From Candidatus Eisenbergiella stercoravium (GTDB lineage: Bacteria; Bacillota; Clostridia; Lachnospirales; Lachnospiraceae): DNA of 32,614 nucleotides. The stretch spans positions 1 to 32,614 of the forward strand of contig DXHY01000061.1 of the NCBI GenBank assembly GCA_019113175.1, given 5' to 3'. A program made the translations under genes and the position numbers. Below, one piece after another: positions 12,472-20,193 of the stretch (its first letter is position 1; every line of letters starts with the position of its first letter). The notes under the pieces were generated by a model, which was given only the letters and a program-made list of their open reading frames with translations, was not told the DNA's origin and ran no database searches.

Positions 12472-13203
12472 ATGGAAAGACATGCAACCTCAGCCGAGCT
12501 GAAGGCCAGGGCAAAGGGGCAGCTTCTTGGAAAATACGGAACCGTGATTCCCGCGATCCTCATCGTGGAGATCATCATGTTTGTGATCAGCAGCATCATC
12601 ACGTTTCCTCTGAATACACAGACCATACCGGGAATTATCATCAGTTTTATTATTGACTGTCTGTTGCAGCTTTTTGCGGGAATCTTCATCGCGGGGCAGA
12701 CCTATCTGTATCTGAACATTTCCTGCGGCGGAAACATCCGGGTCAGCGATGTGTTCTACGGCTTCACCCATCATCCGGATAAGGCCATCCTGATCCAGCT
12801 TTTCCAGCTTCTTCTGATGCTGGCGACTTTCGTGCCGCTGTTTCTCTTTCTGGCTCTGTGGATGGTGATCGACACGCTCTATATGCTGATTCCCATCACC
12901 GTCACTTTCTGCTTCGGACTGGCAGCATCCATCATCATCACGCTGATGTACTCACAGAGCTACTTCGTGATGCTGGATTTCCCGGATTTTTCCGCAGTTC
13001 AGTGCCTGCGCTTCAGCCGGAAGATCATGAAGGGGAACAAGGCGAGACGCTTTTATCTGGATGTGAGCTTTATCCCTCTGTATCTGCTGGGTTTCCTCAC
13101 CTGCTGCATCGGTCTGCTGTTCGTGATTCCCTATATGAACACCACCTACTCCAATTTCTATCTGGAGCTGATGAGCAAAAGGAATGGGCAGGGTTCTCAC
13201 TAA
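12472..13203 (+). CDS. DUF975 family integral membrane protein
   Basis: Integral membrane protein of unknown function. The 243-residue protein shows the DUF975 pattern. It starts with a helix of the type SAELKARAKGQLLGKYG and continues with about six hydrophobic segments. An amphipathic RFSRKIMKGNKARRFYLD region precedes the last pair of segments, and the C-terminus ends IPYMNTTYSNFYLELM, matching the family's PY-x-x-T-x-x-x-FY ending. The ATG at 12472 follows AAAGGAGAG. It sits 45 bp after the small membrane protein gene and ends 55 bp before a strong convergent terminator shared with prfB. Confidence 0.82.
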   Translation: MERHATSAELKARAKGQLLGKYGTVIPAILIVEIIMFVISSIITFPLNTQTIPGIIISFIIDCLLQLFAGIFIAGQTYLYLNISCGGNIRVSDVFYGFTHHPDKAILIQLFQLLLMLATFVPLFLFLALWMVIDTLYMLIPITVTFCFGLAASIIITLMYSQSYFVMLDFPDFSAVQCLRFSRKIMKGNKARRFYLDVSFIPLYLLGFLTCCIGLLFVIPYMNTTYSNFYLELMSKRNGQGSH

Positions 13204-13257
13204 TCATTAAAGATGTTCTTTCGCTGAACATGCTCCGCCCCAAACGTGCACCTACGG

Positions 13258-13300
13258 AAAAGCATCGGCCCATTACAATAATGGCCGATGCTTTATATTT
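13258..13300. terminator. Bidirectional terminator between the DUF975 gene and prfB
   Basis: A perfect 10-bp stem AGCATCGGCC/GGCCGATGCT (13261-13270, 13283-13292), with T-rich flanks on both strands (TTTATATTTTC on plus, TTTTCC on minus). Both convergent genes end next to it. Confidence 0.85.
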
Positions 13301-13301
13301 T

Positions 13302-14427
13302 CTATTCTTCTCCTTCAGCCTTCCCCGTGCTGATCCACTTGAGGTAGGCATTGATGAAGGGATCCAGGTCACCATCCATCACCGCGTCCACATTTCCCGT
13401 TTCATGGCCGGTTCTGTGATCCTTCACCATGGTATAGGGCTGGAAGACGTAGGAACGGATCTGGTTGCCCCAGCCGATTTCCTTCACCTCGCCGCGGATG
13501 CCGGAAAGCTTCTGCGCATTTTCCTCCTGCTTGAGCATGTACAGCTTCGCCTTCAGCATCTGCATGGCCTTATCCTTGTTCTGGAACTGGGAACGCTCGT
13601 TCTGGCACTGCACCACGATTCCGGTAGGAAGGTGGGTGATGCGGATGGCGGAGGATGTCTTGTTGATGTGCTGTCCGCCCGCGCCGCTGCTTCGGTAGGT
13701 ATCGATTCTCAGATCCTCATCGTTGATCTCCACATCCAGATCCTCTTCGATATTCGGCATAACGTCCAGCGATACGAAGGAGGTCTGCCGTTTTCCCTGA
13801 GCGTTGAAGGGAGAAATGCGCACCAGACGGTGTACGCCCTTTTCCGACTTGAGATAGCCGTAGGCGTTTTCTCCGTTCACCTGGAAGGTAACAGACTTGA
13901 TGCCCGCCTCATCGCCGTCCAGATAGTCCAGGACCTCCACGCTGAAGCCCTTTTTCTCAGCCCATCTGGTATACATGCGGTAGAGCATGCTACACCAGTC
14001 GCAGCTTTCCGTTCCGCCCGCTCCGGCGTTCAGCTTCAGGATCGCGTCGTTCTTGTCATACTCCCCTGTCAAAAGGGTACTGATGCGAAGCGTTTCCAGC
14101 TCGCCCGCAAAGGAATCCAGCTCGCCGCGGATCTCCTCGGCCATGCTTTCATCCCCTTCCTCGTTTCCCATCTCGATCAGGGTCTCAATATCCTCATACT
14201 GGGTTTCCAGACCGTTAATCTGATCCACCGTATCCTTGAGGTTTTTCAGTTCCTTCATCTTTTTGTTGGAATAATCGGGATTATCCCAGAAGCCTGGGGC
14301 TTCCATCTCCCGTTCCAGCTCTTCTATCCTCTTCGTCTTTTCAGCGAGGTTAAAGTGAATCCCTCACTTCCGCTAATGGAGTTTTGTAAGACTGTAATTC
14401 CTGCTTCATCTGATCGAGCAAGACCAT
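13302..14427 (-). CDS. prfB: Peptide chain release factor 2, made by +1 frameshift at a UAA codon
   Basis: RF2 releases peptides at UGA and UAA codons. The gene is in two frames. Codons 1-25 run from the ATG at 14427 (starting MVLLDQMKQEL) to TCA CTT, then TAA at 14352-14350. Skipping one T gives AAC CTC GCT GAA and continues as NLAEKTKRIEELEREMEAPG for a 374-residue protein of normal RF2 length. The SPF specificity motif (VRISPFN) and the GGQ catalytic motif (GAGGQHINKTS) are both present. The frameshift site has the usual CTT slip codon. However, the in-frame stop is TAA rather than the usual TGA, and the internal Shine-Dalgarno is only GAGGGA. GGTGGT precedes the ATG. It follows secA by 93 bp, a common Firmicutes order. 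The 14428-14520 gap shows no promoter or terminator. Confidence 0.92.
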
Positions 14428-14520
14428 TGCGAATCACCACCTTTTCTTTTTCAAACCTGTTCTGCCGGGGCATGCTTCATCCGCCTGCCGTCAGCGTTGT
14501 CTCTCTGCTTTCTTCCTCTG

Positions 14521-17088
14521 TTATTTATTCCTGCCGCAGCAGTTCTTATACTTCTTACCGCTTCCGCAGGGACAGGGATCATTGGGGTAAACCTTGGCCG
14601 CAGCCTTTTTCACGGGAGTTTTCGCCTTTGAGTCGTCCTTGTTGGTTCCCGTCACCTTAGCAACCTGTTCTCTTTCCACCTTCTGCTCCACACGAACATG
14701 GAAGAGCAGACGCAGGGTATCCTCCTGGATGCTTTCCGTCATGGCGTTGAACATCTCATAGCCGCTCATCTTATACTCCACCAGAGGATCCCTCTGGCCG
14801 TATGCCTGCAGGCCGATGCCCTGACGGAGCTGCTCCATATCGTCGATATGGGACATCCACTTGTTATCGATTACCTTCAGAAGCACCACGCGCTCCAGCT
14901 CACGGATCATCTCCGCCTGCGGGAACTCCGCTTCCTTATTTTCATACAGCTTGACGGCTTCTTCCTTCAGCTGCTGCTTCAGGCTGTTTTTCTTGGGCTT
15001 TGCCACCCGCTCCTTCGTGACCGGAGCCAGGGGGATGATCGGAAGCAGGAGGGAATTCAGCTCGGTGAAATTCCACTCGTCCACATCCGCATCCTCACCG
15101 ATCACCATATCCACGGTGTTGTCCACCGTATCCGTAATCATCTTGTAGATCACGTCGCGCATGCTCTCACCGTCCAGCACGCGGCGTCTTTCCGCATAGA
15201 TGATCTCACGCTGCTCATTCATCACCTGGTCGTACTCCAGCAGGTTCTTACGGATGCCGAAGTTATTGCCCTCGATCTTCTTCTGGGCGGATTCAATGGC
15301 ACCCGTGAGCATTTTGTGCTCGATCTCCTGGTTCTCCGGCACGCCCATCGCATTGAACATATTGATCAGGCGCTCGGAACCGAACAGGCGCATCAGGTCA
15401 TCTTCCAGTGAAATGTAGAACTTGGATTCGCCCGGATCTCCCTGACGGCCGCTTCGACCGCGCAGCTGGTTGTCGATACGTCTGGATTCGTGACGCTCCG
15501 TGCCGATGATCTTCAGACCACCCACTGCTCTCGCCTCATCGTCCAGCTTGATATCCGTACCACGGCCCGCCATGTTGGTGGCGATGGTGACCGCGCCATG
15601 AACACCGGCGTCCGCCACGATCTCCGCCTCAAGCTCATGGAATTTTGCGTTCAGCACCTTATGCGGAATGCCCTTCTTTTTCAGAAGGCCGGAAAGCTCT
15701 TCGGAAGCTTCGATGGTGATGGTGCCCACCAGCACGGGCTGGCCCTTCGCATGTGCCTCCTCCACCGCTTCCACGATGGCGTGAAGCTTTTCCTTTTTCG
15801 TCTTATATACGGCATCCTGATGATCGATTCTGCGCACCGGCTTGTTGGTGGGGATCTCCACCACGTCCATACCGTAAATATCGCGGAATTCCTTCTCCTC
15901 CGTCAGCGCCGTACCGGTCATGCCGGCTTTTTTCTCAAATTTATTGAAGAAGTTCTGGAAGGTGATGGTGGCAAGGGTCTTGCTCTCCCGCTTAACCTTC
16001 ACATGCTCCTTCGCCTCGATGGCCTGATGCAGTCCGTCCGAATAGCGCCGTCCCGGCATGATACGGCCGGTGAACTCATCCACGATCAGCACCTGGTCAT
16101 CCTTCACCACATAGTCCTTGTCACGGAACATCAGGTTGTTCGCCCGCAGCGCGAGGATGATGTTGTGCTGGATCTCCAGATTCTGCGGATCAGCCAGATT
16201 GTCAATCTGGAAGAATTTCTCCACCTTGGCCACACCGCGTTCGGTCAGGTTGACCACCTTATCCTTTTCATTGACGATGAAGTCTCCGGTTTCCTCCTGC
16301 TCCACGCCCATGATGGCGTCCAGCTTGGAGAGATCCTCCATATCCCTGCCCCGTTCCATCTGCTTGGCCAGAATGTCGCAGGCCTCATACAGTCTGGTGG
16401 ATTTGCCGCTCTGGCCGGAAATGATCAGAGGCGTTCTGGCCTCGTCGATGAGCACAGAGTCCACCTCATCGATGATGGCATAATGCAGATCTCTCAGAAC
16501 CAGCTGTTCCTTATAGATGACCATGTTGTCTCTCAGATAGTCGAAACCCAGTTCGTTGTTGGTCACGTAGGTGATATCCTTCGCGTACTCCGCGCGGCGT
16601 TCCTCCGACTTCATGCCGTTTAAGACACAGCCCACCTCCAGGCCGAGGAATTCATGCACGGCGCCCATCCAGGCCGCGTCACGGCTGGCCAGATAGTCGT
16701 TGACCGTAACCACATGCACGCCCTTGCCTTCCAGCGCATTCAGATAGGCGGGGAGGGTGGAAACCAGCGTCTTTCCTTCACCTGTCTTCATCTCCGCGAT
16801 ACGTCCCTGATGAAGGATGATACCTCCGATCAGCTGTACACGGAAGGGTTCCATGTTCAGGACACGCCGGGCAGCCTCACGCACTGTGGCATAAGCCTCA
16901 GGCAGTAGGTCGTCCAGAGTTTCTCCATCCGCAAGCCTCTTCTTGAATTCCTTCGTCTTGTCCTTCAGCGCATCATCGGAAAGCGCCATCATCTCAGGTC
17001 TCAGGGATTCTATTTTTTCCACAAGGGGTTCGATCCGCTTCAGCTCTCTCTGGCTGTGCGTACCGAAAACTTTTTGAATGATATTCAT
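14521..17088 (-). CDS. secA: Preprotein translocase ATPase SecA
   Basis: Motor that drives unfolded preproteins through SecYEG at the membrane. The 855-residue protein has Walker A MKTGEGKT (100-107), the DEVD Walker B region ([20 protein letters not shown]), helicase motifs [12 protein letters not shown] and [10 protein letters not shown], and a C-terminal zinc-binding SEC-C tail [15 protein letters not shown] that binds SecB or ribosomes in other bacteria. The length is typical. The ATG at 17088 is preceded by GGAGCAGGT. It is the first gene of the secA-prfB unit, with a promoter at 17226-17254 and a leader of about 130 nt. Confidence 0.97.
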
Positions 17089-18037: not shown

Positions 18038-18153
18038 ACAATGGGTTTATCGGGAAATTTTTTCAGAAAATCCTGTCAGCTTCCGTTCTCCGGAGGCGCT
18101 TTCCCGGTTCCCTGATAACCATCCATAAATTATGATAAATGAGGTGCAGACAA

Positions 18154-19074
18154 ATGAGTACAAGTTTTGACGGACTGATTTCCAAGGTAAAGGAATGCGG
18201 ACAGAAGACCGTTTCCGTTGCTGTCGCACAGGACAGCGCTGTTCTGGAAGCCGTAAGGGCTGCCAAGGACCGTGGTATCGCCAATGCCGTTCTCGTAGGC
18301 GATGAAGAAAAGATCAGGGCGGTTGCCGCCAAAGACGGTATTGATATTTCCGATTTTGAGATTATTCATGAGCCGGATGAATGGACGGCCGCTCTGACCG
18401 CCGTAAAGCTTGCTCATGACGGAAAAGTGGACATGTATATGAAGGGCCTTCTGGAAACCAAGACCTTCTTAAAGAGCATTCTCGACAAGGAGGTTGGCCT
18501 TCGGACCGGCCATCCGCTTTCCCATGTATGCGTATTTGATATTCCCGGCATCGAACAGCTTCTGTTCTTCACGGACGTGGCCTTCATGACCTATCCCTCT
18601 CTGGAGGACAAGGTACATATCATCGAAAACACCGTAAAGGTAGCCCATGCCTGCGGCATTCCCAATCCGAAGGTGGCTCCTCTTGCCGCCGTGGAGGTGG
18701 TCAATCCCAAGATGCCCGTCACCGTAGAGGCTGCGGAACTGACCAAAATGAACGAAGAAGGCAAAATCACCGGATGCATCGTGGACGGACCTCTTTCTCT
18801 GGATCTGGCCATCGATCCGGAGGCTGCAAAGCATAAGGGTGCTACGAACCGCAAGATCCAGGGCGACGCCGACATTCTGCTGTTCCCTGATATCCATGCC
18901 GGCAATCTGGTCTACAAGGCCATCGTTCACATGGTGCCCGGCGTAAAGAACGGCTGCATTCTGACCGGAACCAAGGTTCCCGCCATTCTGACCAGCCGCT
19001 CCGACACCTTTGAGACCAAAGTGAATTCCATCGCCCTTGCCGCTGTGGTTGCGGAAAACCTGAACAAAGAATAA
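18154..19074 (+). CDS. ptb: Phosphate butyryltransferase
   Basis: Converts butyryl-CoA and phosphate to butyryl phosphate and CoA, the step before ATP formation by butyrate kinase. The 306-residue protein is of normal length for the PTA/PTB family, with the family pattern LVGDEEKIRAVA near the N-terminus, MKGLLETKTFLKSIL in the middle, and NLVYKAIVHMVPGVKNGCIL followed by TSRSDTFETKVNSIALA at the end. The ATG at 18154 has GAGGTG 8 nt upstream; an upstream in-frame ATG at 18139 lacks one. Pairing with buk 51 bp downstream separates it from phosphate acetyltransferase. Confidence 0.93.
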   Translation: MSTSFDGLISKVKECGQKTVSVAVAQDSAVLEAVRAAKDRGIANAVLVGDEEKIRAVAAKDGIDISDFEIIHEPDEWTAALTAVKLAHDGKVDMYMKGLLETKTFLKSILDKEVGLRTGHPLSHVCVFDIPGIEQLLFFTDVAFMTYPSLEDKVHIIENTVKVAHACGIPNPKVAPLAAVEVVNPKMPVTVEAAELTKMNEEGKITGCIVDGPLSLDLAIDPEAAKHKGATNRKIQGDADILLFPDIHAGNLVYKAIVHMVPGVKNGCILTGTKVPAILTSRSDTFETKVNSIALAAVVAENLNKE

Positions 19075-19093
19075 TAGAAAAACATGACCATAT

Positions 19094-19110
19094 GCCGTCC
19101 TTCGGACGGC
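19094..19110 (+). other. Hairpin between ptb and buk
   Basis: A perfect 7-bp stem GCCGTCC/GGACGGC with a TTC loop, directly before the buk ribosome binding site and without a T-run. It may influence mRNA processing or buk translation. No promoter is visible between the genes. Confidence 0.5.
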
Positions 19111-19125
19111 GGAAGGAGAGGTAAC

Positions 19126-20193
19126 ATGTCTTTTAAAAGCTTAATCATCAATCCCGGCTCCACCTCCACCAAGATCGGCGTATTTGAAGACGAGACTCTT
19201 CTCTTTGAAGAGACTCTGCGCCATCCCACGGAGGAGATTGCCAAATACGCTTCCATCATTGATCAGAAGGACTTCCGTAAGGATATCATCATGGACCTTC
19301 TGAAGGAGAAAAATTTTGATATTCATTCTCTGGATTTCATCGTGGGCCGCGGCGGCCTGCTGAAGCCCATCCCGGGCGGCACCTATAAGGTGAGCGACGA
19401 GCTGCTTCACGATCTCACCATCGGCTATCAGGGACAGCACGCTTCCAATCTGGGCGGCATCCTTGCCAGAGAGATCGGAGATTCCATCGGCGTTCCTTCC
19501 TTTATCGTGGATCCCGTTGTGGTGGACGAGCTGGAGCCCGTTGCCAGATACTCCGGCTGCCCTGAGCTTCCCAGAAGAAGTATTTTCCACGCGCTCAACC
19601 AGAAGGCTGTAGCGAGAAGATATGCCAAAGAATCCGGCATCCCCTATGAACAGCTCCGTCTGATCGTGGTACACATGGGCGGCGGCTGCTCCGTTGGTGC
19701 GCACAGAGACGGACGCATCGTTGACGTCAACAACATTCTTGACGGCGAAGGCGCCTTCTCCCCGGAACGCGCAGGAACGGTTCCTGCAGGTGATCTGGTG
19801 AAAATGTGCTTTTCCGGAAAATATACGGAAAAGGAAATCTACAAAAAGCTGGTTGGAAACGGCGGCTTCAATGCCTATGTGGGCACCAATGATGCCAGAG
19901 TCGTGCTGAAGGGCGCTGCGGAAGGTAAGAAGGAATATCAGGACGTTCTGGACGCTTTCCTGTATCAGATGGCAAAGGACATCGGCGCCATGGCAACAGT
20001 TCTGGAAGGAAAGGTTGATAAAATCATCCTGACCGGCGGTATCGCCTACTCTGATGTGATCTGCAACGATCTGAAGAGACGGGTCGGCTGGATTGCGGAC
20101 TTCGTTCTCTATCCCGGCGAAGACGAGCTTCTCGCTCTGGCACAGGGCGGCCTGCGCGTCATGAAGGGCGAAGAGGCGGCGAAGGAATACTAA
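19126..20193 (+). CDS. buk: Butyrate kinase
   Basis: Transfers phosphate from butyryl phosphate to ADP, giving butyrate and ATP. The 355-residue protein is the usual length of the acetate/butyrate kinase (ASKHA) family. The phosphate loop [16 protein letters not shown] lies at the N-terminus, [20 protein letters not shown] in the middle, and the adenosine site region [11 protein letters not shown] near the end. The NPGSTSTK form with ptb next to it marks it as butyrate rather than acetate kinase. The ATG at 19126 has GGAGAGG just upstream. The transcript ends at the terminator 20235-20275. Confidence 0.95.

What the first reader, a model, noticed from the sequence alone, without database searches (positions are those of the whole stretch)
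14340..14375. prfB programmed frameshift uses UAA instead of UGA
Almost all autoregulated RF2 genes shift at CUU UGA C, because only RF2 reads UGA and scarce RF2 raises the shift rate. Here the site reads AGG GAT TCA CTT TAA C. The rest of RF2 follows perfectly in the +1 frame, so a shift is needed, but UAA is also read by RF1. The internal Shine-Dalgarno is weak too (GAGGGA). Autoregulation by RF2 level should be blunted, or the site may respond to total release factor activity.
Basis: partly seen in the sequence, partly recalled or inferred. Interest (0 to 1): 0.72.

Follow-up and report, generated by a model that had tools for sequence, protein, structure and literature searches.

The report
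Release-factor frameshift site with UAA stop
In this bacterium the gene for release factor 2 must be read through a deliberate reading-frame slip at the stop codon UAA rather than the usual UGA; relatives show this is a stable, repeatedly evolved variant, and a few of them have moved on to UAG, a stop codon that this factor is not known to read.

Summary
On the minus strand prfB reads ATG...AGG GAT TCA CTT TAA C and RF2 continues in the +1 frame. It is no sequencing error: 11 of 11 same-genus genomes with prfB (own included) carry CTT TAA C.

UAA here is in print as a 1.4% minority (Prince 2025). In this family UAA/UAG make up about 16% of pattern-matched shift sites (42 of ~262, one of them UAG); starred branches of an RF2 tree force at least 19 changes of the UAA label. 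UAG, absent from the 8,164 genes of that survey, occurs in six of seven prfB-bearing species of one genus, in one species of another (beside UGA and UAA congeners), and in one Prevotellaceae MAG.

The leader is under purifying selection; the 12-base motif is frozen in UGA, UAA and UAG genes but absent from 36 of 36 in-frame relatives. The stop also helps spell residue 26 (Asp, Asn, Ser), a predicted helix cap that covaries with residue 29, in in-frame relatives too. There D:N:S is 26:2:1, so UGA's lead in this family need not reflect RF2 sensing.

The 'weak SD' is the family norm. Shifting and autoregulation were not measured.

The parts
14434..14443 (-). candidate ribosome binding site AAGGTGGTGA of prfB, 6 bases before the ATG
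   Evidence: read directly; function inferred
14353..14427 (-). leader part of prfB, frame 0, 25 codons, MVLLDQMKQELQSYKTPLAEVRDSL
   Evidence: pN/pS 0.15 in the genus in frame 0, 1.14 and 7.8 in the other frames
14353..14370 (-). shift-site stimulator GAA GTG AGG GAT TCA and P-site codon CTT; GAA, AGG, GAT, TCA and CTT are nearly frozen at synonymous positions in the family
   Evidence: pairing with the 16S 3' tail is predicted only (tail letters seen in same-genus G006)
14350..14352 (-). in-frame stop codon UAA of the shift site (UGA in most bacteria)
14349..14351 (-). AAC, first codon after the +1 shift, Asn26 of RF2 (predicted N-cap of helix 27-41)
13302..14351 (-). RF2 main part, +1 frame, 349 aa and stop
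   Evidence: TIGR00020 540 bits
14340..14342 (-). codon of residue 29 (Glu, N3 of the same helix), the one other RF2 column that covaries strongly with the stop codon

Best explanation
This is a working +1 programmed frameshift site of prfB in which UAA replaces UGA. The ribosome reads 25 codons, an AGGGAUUC element pairs with the 16S tail (predicted), the P-site tRNA slips from CUU to UUU, and AAC is read as Asn26 of RF2 (inferred from the known prfB mechanism). At UAA both RF1 and RF2 can compete with the slip, so RF2 still acts on its own synthesis but shares control with RF1 (inferred). The last two stop bases plus C also encode residue 26 in the +1 frame, so stop identity is bound to protein structure: UGA-C gives Asp, UAA-C Asn, UAG-C Ser, each with a matching residue 29 in a helix-capping pair (covariation shown, structure predicted). 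In this family the stop has changed between UGA and UAA many times and in two genera also reads UAG (shown; direction inferred). The site keeps its other elements, so the frameshift outlives the loss of an RF2-only stop.
For: Genus: 11 of 11 prfB genes UAA. Family: 42 sites judged real with UAA or UAG in 397 genomes (50 genomes matched, 51 rows listed, 9 rows judged chance), against 221 of the 397 matching the UGA pattern. Tree of 105 RF2: 27 changes of the label; starred branches force at least 19 for UAA and 3 for UAG. Leader pN/pS 0.15 in the window's genus and 0.02 in the UAG genus, against 0.11 and 0.13 in RF2 codons 1-60, and 0.83-7.8 in the other frames. Codons of the commonest residue: GAA 95/95, AGG 93/93, GAT 96/97, TCA 96/98, CTT 98/98; AGGGATTCACTT in 0 of 36 in-frame relatives. 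Residue 29: N/G/S in 39 of 44 UGA rows, E/D/A/Q in 45 of 54 UAA rows, A in 7 of 7 UAG rows; 16 independent pairs, on average 14.3 one way and 0.0 against, median p 0.00012. The same coupling without a frameshift: N/G/S/T29 in 25 of 26 Asp26 rows and in 2 of 10 others (p 1e-5). Predicted helix 27-41 right after residue 26. RF2 residue 246 is Ser or Ala in 98 of 98; PMC5373646 (passages) reports that with the E. coli K-12 RF2 variant UAA is decoded mainly by RF1, but by both factors with the Ala246 form.
Against: No measurement of frameshifting or of RF1/RF2 response exists here. Most of the genomes are drafts. Conservation shows that the shift is used, not that it is regulated. The 16S-tail test is only suggestive: 10 of 200 shuffled tails did as well (GUG context only), in the GUA context the pairing is weaker (-9.0 at 15 bases), and the exact tail was found in 1 of 10 genomes tried. 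Tree rows hold all 42 UAA/UAG sites but only 44 UGA rows, so shares must be taken.
Confidence: 0.85

Rival explanations
1. Relaxed regulation: the shift is efficient enough that the stop's identity hardly matters; RF2 autoregulation is weak or lost in this family, and the stop drifts among UGA, UAA and UAG under protein-level constraint on residue 26.
For: Many switches (at least 19 for UAA); in 36 in-frame relatives D against N+S is 26:3, not different from about 220:42 for UGA against UAA+UAG (Fisher p 0.59); stop usage of UAA-site and UGA-site neighbourhoods is alike (TAA/TAG/TGA 141/55/68 of 264 and 141/66/56 of 263; chi-square p 0.34); UAG in 6 of 7 prfB genes of a genus.
Against: Stop, slip codon and stimulator are all retained, although a one-base deletion would do away with the need (such deletions arose as suppressors in PMC13245932, passages) and 36 of 41 relatives examined outside the pattern matches are in frame. 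UAG is very rare: 8 species in a scan of the 84,980-species collection, a lower bound because the pattern was strict. The in-frame control is small.
Confidence: 0.35
2. Adaptive rewiring: UAA senses the summed RF1 and RF2 activity and UAG senses RF1, so RF2 is made when RF1 is short and takes over the shared UAA codons.
For: Codon specificity of RF1 and RF2 (established); RF2 SPF in 98 of 98 rows, RF1 P-x-T stretch in 20 of 21 loci; UAG in 6 of 7 prfB genes of one genus.
Against: No link to stop usage in the sampled neighbourhoods; switches are frequent and patchy, as drift would be.
Confidence: 0.2
3. Sequencing error or decaying gene: the true base is TGA, or the gene is broken.
For: Only the draft status of the assembly (89 contigs).
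Against: Same UAA in 11 of 11 congeners, low pN/pS on both sides of the site, matching residue 29.
Confidence: 0.01
4. Internal start: RF2 is made from a start codon after the site and the leader is a separate short peptide.
For: An in-frame ATG lies at 14306, and this Met41 is invariant in the 28-row alignment.
Against: The leader matches the N-terminus of in-frame relatives nearly residue for residue and is under purifying selection; the slip motif is absent from 36 of 36 in-frame genes; RF2 from 14306 would lack residues 1-40, including the coupled residues 26 and 29.
Confidence: 0.03

Closest known systems
prfB +1 programmed ribosomal frameshift, UGA type (E. coli; 98.6% of the shift-type genes in PMC12421855)
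   Same: Stop at codon 26, slip codon CTT, +4 C, purine-rich element at the same spacing, RF2 in the +1 frame
   Different: Stop is UAA (UAG in a few relatives); stimulator AGGGATTCA with a predicted bulged 16S pairing instead of AGGGGG; residue 26 is Asn instead of Asp
prfB UAA-type shift sites (1.4% of 8,164 in PMC12421855; motif YTT_TRA_C in PMC3711429)
   Same: CTTTAAC; the window belongs to this described minority
   Different: Described there as not broadly fixed in particular clades; here in 11 of 11 prfB genes of a genus and, with UAG, about 16% of pattern-matched shift sites of the family
In-frame prfB without frameshift (36 relatives examined here; Actinomycetota in PMC12421855)
   Same: Leader and RF2 align nearly residue for residue; same coupling of residues 26 and 29
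   Different: No stop, no AGGGATTCACTT motif (0 of 36)

Membership tests
prfB +1 programmed frameshift | RF2 encoded downstream in the +1 frame | tested here: met
   TIGR00020 540 bits; SPF and GGQ
prfB +1 programmed frameshift | Slip codon, stop, then C (YTT TRA C) | tested here: met
   CTT TAA C
prfB +1 programmed frameshift | Internal Shine-Dalgarno-like element at fixed spacing | tested here: met
   AGGGATTCA, near-frozen in the family; pairing predicted only
prfB +1 programmed frameshift | Leader translated and conserved as protein | tested here: met
   pN/pS 0.15 in frame 0; translation itself not observed
prfB +1 programmed frameshift | Frameshifting occurs and responds to RF2 level | not testable with these tools
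   needs reporter, ribosome profiling or mass spectrometry
UGA-type (RF2-only stop) autoregulatory site | Stop codon read by RF2 alone | tested here: not met
   Stop is UAA

The most novel reading that the evidence does not exclude
In Lachnospiraceae the prfB frameshift has come loose from RF2 sensing. The stop codon is held mainly by the amino acid it helps to spell in the +1 frame (Asp, Asn or Ser as a helix cap), so UGA's predominance is no proof of RF2 autoregulation, and in UAG lineages RF2 synthesis is set by RF1 or not set by release factors at all.
Probability: 0.35. Interest if true: 0.8.

Novelty: new variant of a known kind. Interest (0 to 1): 0.6.

Why it matters
The prfB site is the textbook autoregulatory frameshift, and near-universal UGA is a main comparative argument that its purpose is RF2 autoregulation; a 2025 survey reports no UAG in 8,164 genes (PMC12421855, passages). 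UAG sites in most species of a genus, and one genus holding UGA, UAA and UAG at otherwise identical sites, are natural experiments that separate 'needs a frameshift' from 'senses RF2'. The link between stop identity and residue 26 adds a rival reason for UGA conservation (Asp) that surveys would have to exclude. The window's own UAA taken alone is a member of a known minority; the new variant is UAG.

Tried and rejected
Stop-usage or AT-bias cause: stop usage is alike (chi-square p 0.34), and UAA-site stretches are richer in GC3 (0.563 against 0.483). One search used 20 UAA stretches (19 of the 20 plus the window), one UAG stretch (the 20th), and 18 of the 20 regions (L170 and L172 were short filler regions and were dropped); ORFs were called naively.

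A conserved hairpin AAGTGA/TCACTT around the site was considered by eye only: the codon in its 5' arm varies (GTG, TTG, GTA, ATG, CTG, ATA, CTA) while the 3' arm stays fixed, so it was dropped. No covariation tool was run on it.

Altered codon reading in the UAG genus: SPF and GGQ are intact in 98 of 98 RF2. A standard RF1 P-x-T stretch was found in 20 of 21 loci checked; the exception, L114, is a 160-aa fragment. Four RF2 columns are private to the UAG rows of that genus or nearly so, one of them residue 26; the other three were not examined further.

Class level: 8 of 216 genomes match the shift pattern; one (G492) looks like chance, three lie in other families and are UGA, and the only UAA is the window's own. 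A survey round the Prevotellaceae UAG MAG failed, so that case (L138) rests on one MAG; it is a long branch and was left out.

My first claim that the 16S pairing is stronger than in E. coli compared 18 with 15 bases; at equal length it is slightly weaker. In some searches one in-frame row (L201) was skipped or misread because of an early Trp; the counts given are those.

Full report
WHAT IS THERE. The window's prfB lies on the minus strand, downstream of secA on the same strand (14521-17088). A 25-codon frame 0 from the ATG at 14427 ends CTT TAA C; RF2 continues in the +1 frame to 13302. The joined protein has 374 residues and, aligned with 27 in-frame relatives, has SPF at 205-207 and GGQ at 250-252. 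After TAA frame 0 closes within two codons, so only a +1 shift (or an internal start) can make RF2. The prfB search found one match over the cut-off and one RF1-level match in the genome.

IS IT REAL. Of 13 genomes of the genus (own included) 11 have a prfB match over the cut-off; all 11 carry AGGGATTCACTTTAAC. The two without are drafts of 81% completeness.

HOW COMMON. Among 397 genomes of the family a UAA/UAG pattern matched 50; of 51 listed rows I judged 9 to be chance by their letters, leaving 42 sites, 41 UAA and one UAG. The UGA pattern matched 221 of the same 397 (the listing was cut; seven listed rows look like chance, in genomes that also have a true row; G232, which has a UAA site, also matches, its row not listed). 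Taking 220, UAA/UAG make up about 16%. To see what the rest have, I looked at 42 genomes without a match (41 of them also unmatched; G062 matches): 41 have prfB, 36 in frame and 5 of the shift type (1 UAA, 4 UGA, one of these with +4 A). Prince et al. (PMC12421855; outline, abstract and passages) give 98.6% TGA, 1.4% TAA and no TAG in 8,164 genes, and call TAA poorly tolerated and not broadly fixed in particular clades. In Lachnospiraceae it is common and in places fixed at genus level.

UAG. One family hit, G295, reads CTT TAG C. Its genus has 8 genomes held: prfB over the cut-off was found in 7; 6 are UAG and 1 (G316, a 67% complete draft) is UAA; each of the 8 has an RF1-level match, one of them partial. 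A scan of the 84,980-species collection for UAG sites gave 34 stretches, of which 8 precede an RF2 frame of 339-350 aa with SPF and GGQ. The pattern was strict (+4 C, fixed Lys, Shine-Dalgarno letters), so this is a lower bound. Six of the 8 have the same RF2 as the six species above; two of those are titled Candidatus Fimimorpha. The other two are Lachnospiraceae MAG Th196P3bin150 (L131) and Prevotellaceae MAG Pc512_bin97 (L138). L131 matches G626, whose genus holds, in 5 of 6 genomes with a match, G625 and G628 UGA, G099 and G627 UAA, and G626 UAG, with the same site letters GCGGAAGTGAGGGATTCACTTTxxC and RF2 78.6-89.8% identical. In a third genus 3 of 3 are UAA. UAG ends 4 of 15 naive ORFs round prfB in G295. 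In the tree the UAG rows lie beside UAA rows: L131 with L163 (100/100), three Fimimorpha rows with L159 (96/85) and three with L106 (94/45, not well supported). A series UGA, UAA, UAG by single A/G steps is the natural reading; the tree is unrooted, so direction is inferred.

TREE. With the first 8 residues after the junction left out, 105 RF2 proteins need 27 changes of the stop label; starred branches force at least 19 for UAA and 3 for UAG (99 rows with L138 gave 28, 16 and 4). The rows hold all 42 sites but only 44 UGA rows.

FUNCTIONAL MARKS. Leader codons -24 to -5 have pN/pS 0.15 in the window's genus and 0.02 in the UAG genus, against 0.11 and 0.13 for RF2 codons 1-60, and 0.83-7.8 when the leader is read in the other frames; over all UAA and all UGA rows the leader has 0.40 and 0.41. 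Synonymous choice is near-frozen at GAA (95/95), AGG (93/93), GAT (96/97), TCA (96/98) and CTT (98/98), while most other codons vary. AGGGATTCA precedes CTT in 35 of 40 UGA, 49 of 51 UAA and 7 of 8 UAG rows, and AGGGATTCACTT occurs in 0 of 36 in-frame relatives. So UAA and UAG genes are held to the same shift motif as UGA genes.

STIMULATOR. Against the 16S tail GGAUCACCUCCUUUCU the window's site is predicted to form a duplex with one bulge. At 15 bases it gives -12.0 kcal/mol against -13.1 for the E. coli site; with the upstream GAA (18 bases) -15.1; in the GUA context -9.0 at 15 bases. Among 144 synonymous codings the native one has no better rival in the GUG, UUG, CUG and CUA contexts (74 of the 89 sites with the full motif), but 2 to 5 better ones in the GUA, AUG and AUA contexts (15 sites); in the GUG context 10 of 200 shuffled tails did as well. 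The tail letters occur four times in same-genus G006 and were not found in 9 other genomes, all drafts; a different tail there is not excluded. This is a prediction, and it leaves little ground for calling this site weaker than its UGA relatives.

THE CODON READ TWICE. The last two stop bases plus C are codon 26 in the +1 frame: GAC Asp, AAC Asn, AGC Ser. Over the whole of RF2 only residue 29 follows the stop strongly (total variation 0.84; next column 0.43). In one search UGA rows have N/G/S in 39 of 44, UAA rows E/D/A/Q in 45 of 54, UAG rows A in 7 of 7; 16 independent pairs go on average 14.3 one way and 0.0 against, median p 0.00012 (the smaller set: 13 pairs, at most one against). AlphaFold on the joined protein (28 rows, mean pLDDT 80, blocks round the site 81-89) puts helix 27-41 right after residue 26, so 26 would be N-cap and 29 N3; the capping-box idea is recalled knowledge. 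In 36 in-frame relatives the coupling holds without any frameshift: N/G/S/T29 in 25 of 26 Asp26 rows and in 2 of 10 others. Two readings follow. The residue spelled by the shifted codon is most simply taken to be present in the working protein of UAA and UAG species. And without any stop the D:N:S ratio is 26:2:1, not different from about 220:42 for UGA against UAA+UAG (p 0.59), so within this family UGA's lead needs no appeal to RF2 sensing. The control is small, and in-frame genes also have G (3), A (2), K (1) and H (1).

MECHANISM AND LIMITS. Shown: site, conservation, recurrence, coupling. Inferred: the shift itself, competition by RF1 and RF2 at UAA, and RF2 acting on UAA because residue 246 is Ser or Ala (98 of 98; the E. 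coli K-12 and B comparison is from passages of PMC5373646). Not known: the size of any feedback. I commit to a functional shift with shared RF1/RF2 control in the window, and hold relaxed regulation as the strongest rival.

PRINT. In searches (30 of 49 papers listed), 53 and 63 of the held library I saw no report of UAG at this site; I saw listings and starts of abstracts for most of these papers. Baranov 2002 is not held; Bekaert 2006 was not looked up. PMC13245932 (passages and one section) treats loss of autoregulation and speaks of an internal UGA in the passages I saw. PMC3711429 (passages) gives the motif as YTT_TRA_C. One search only traced the name Fimimorpha.

Noticed in passing
window 18139-20193 (+) and about 24.5-30.7 kb (-): Phosphate butyryltransferase and butyrate kinase side by side, and thiolase, enoyl-CoA hydratase, 3-hydroxyacyl-CoA dehydrogenase, acyl-CoA dehydrogenase and an electron transfer flavoprotein alpha-type subunit nearby: it looks like a butyrate pathway of the ptb-buk type.
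   Followed up: no
window 12858-14660 (+): A 600-aa open frame lies antisense to prfB and across the shift site; no NCBIfam match at E 1e-10. Probably a codon-composition effect.
   Followed up: partly
L224 (G155): A prfB site CTT TGA A, with +4 A instead of C (the other 104 of 105 tree rows have C), giving Glu26; its +1 frame also stays open further upstream than usual.
   Followed up: no
L138: Prevotellaceae MAG Pc512_bin97 with AGGAGGTGT CTT TAG C before a 339-aa RF2 frame: a possible unrelated UAG origin, resting on one MAG.
   Followed up: partly
G012:C2:187361-187927 and G004:C106:4637-4912: Extra weaker release-factor-like matches in two large genomes of the window's genus, possibly PrfH-like genes or fragments.
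   Followed up: no
leader codon -6 in the family: Where this residue is Glu (95 of 98 rows) its codon is always GAA, although it lies outside the classical Shine-Dalgarno; it may pair with the UUUC end of the 16S tail, but GAG would cost only 0.4 kcal/mol in the commonest context, so the freezing is not well explained.
   Followed up: partly
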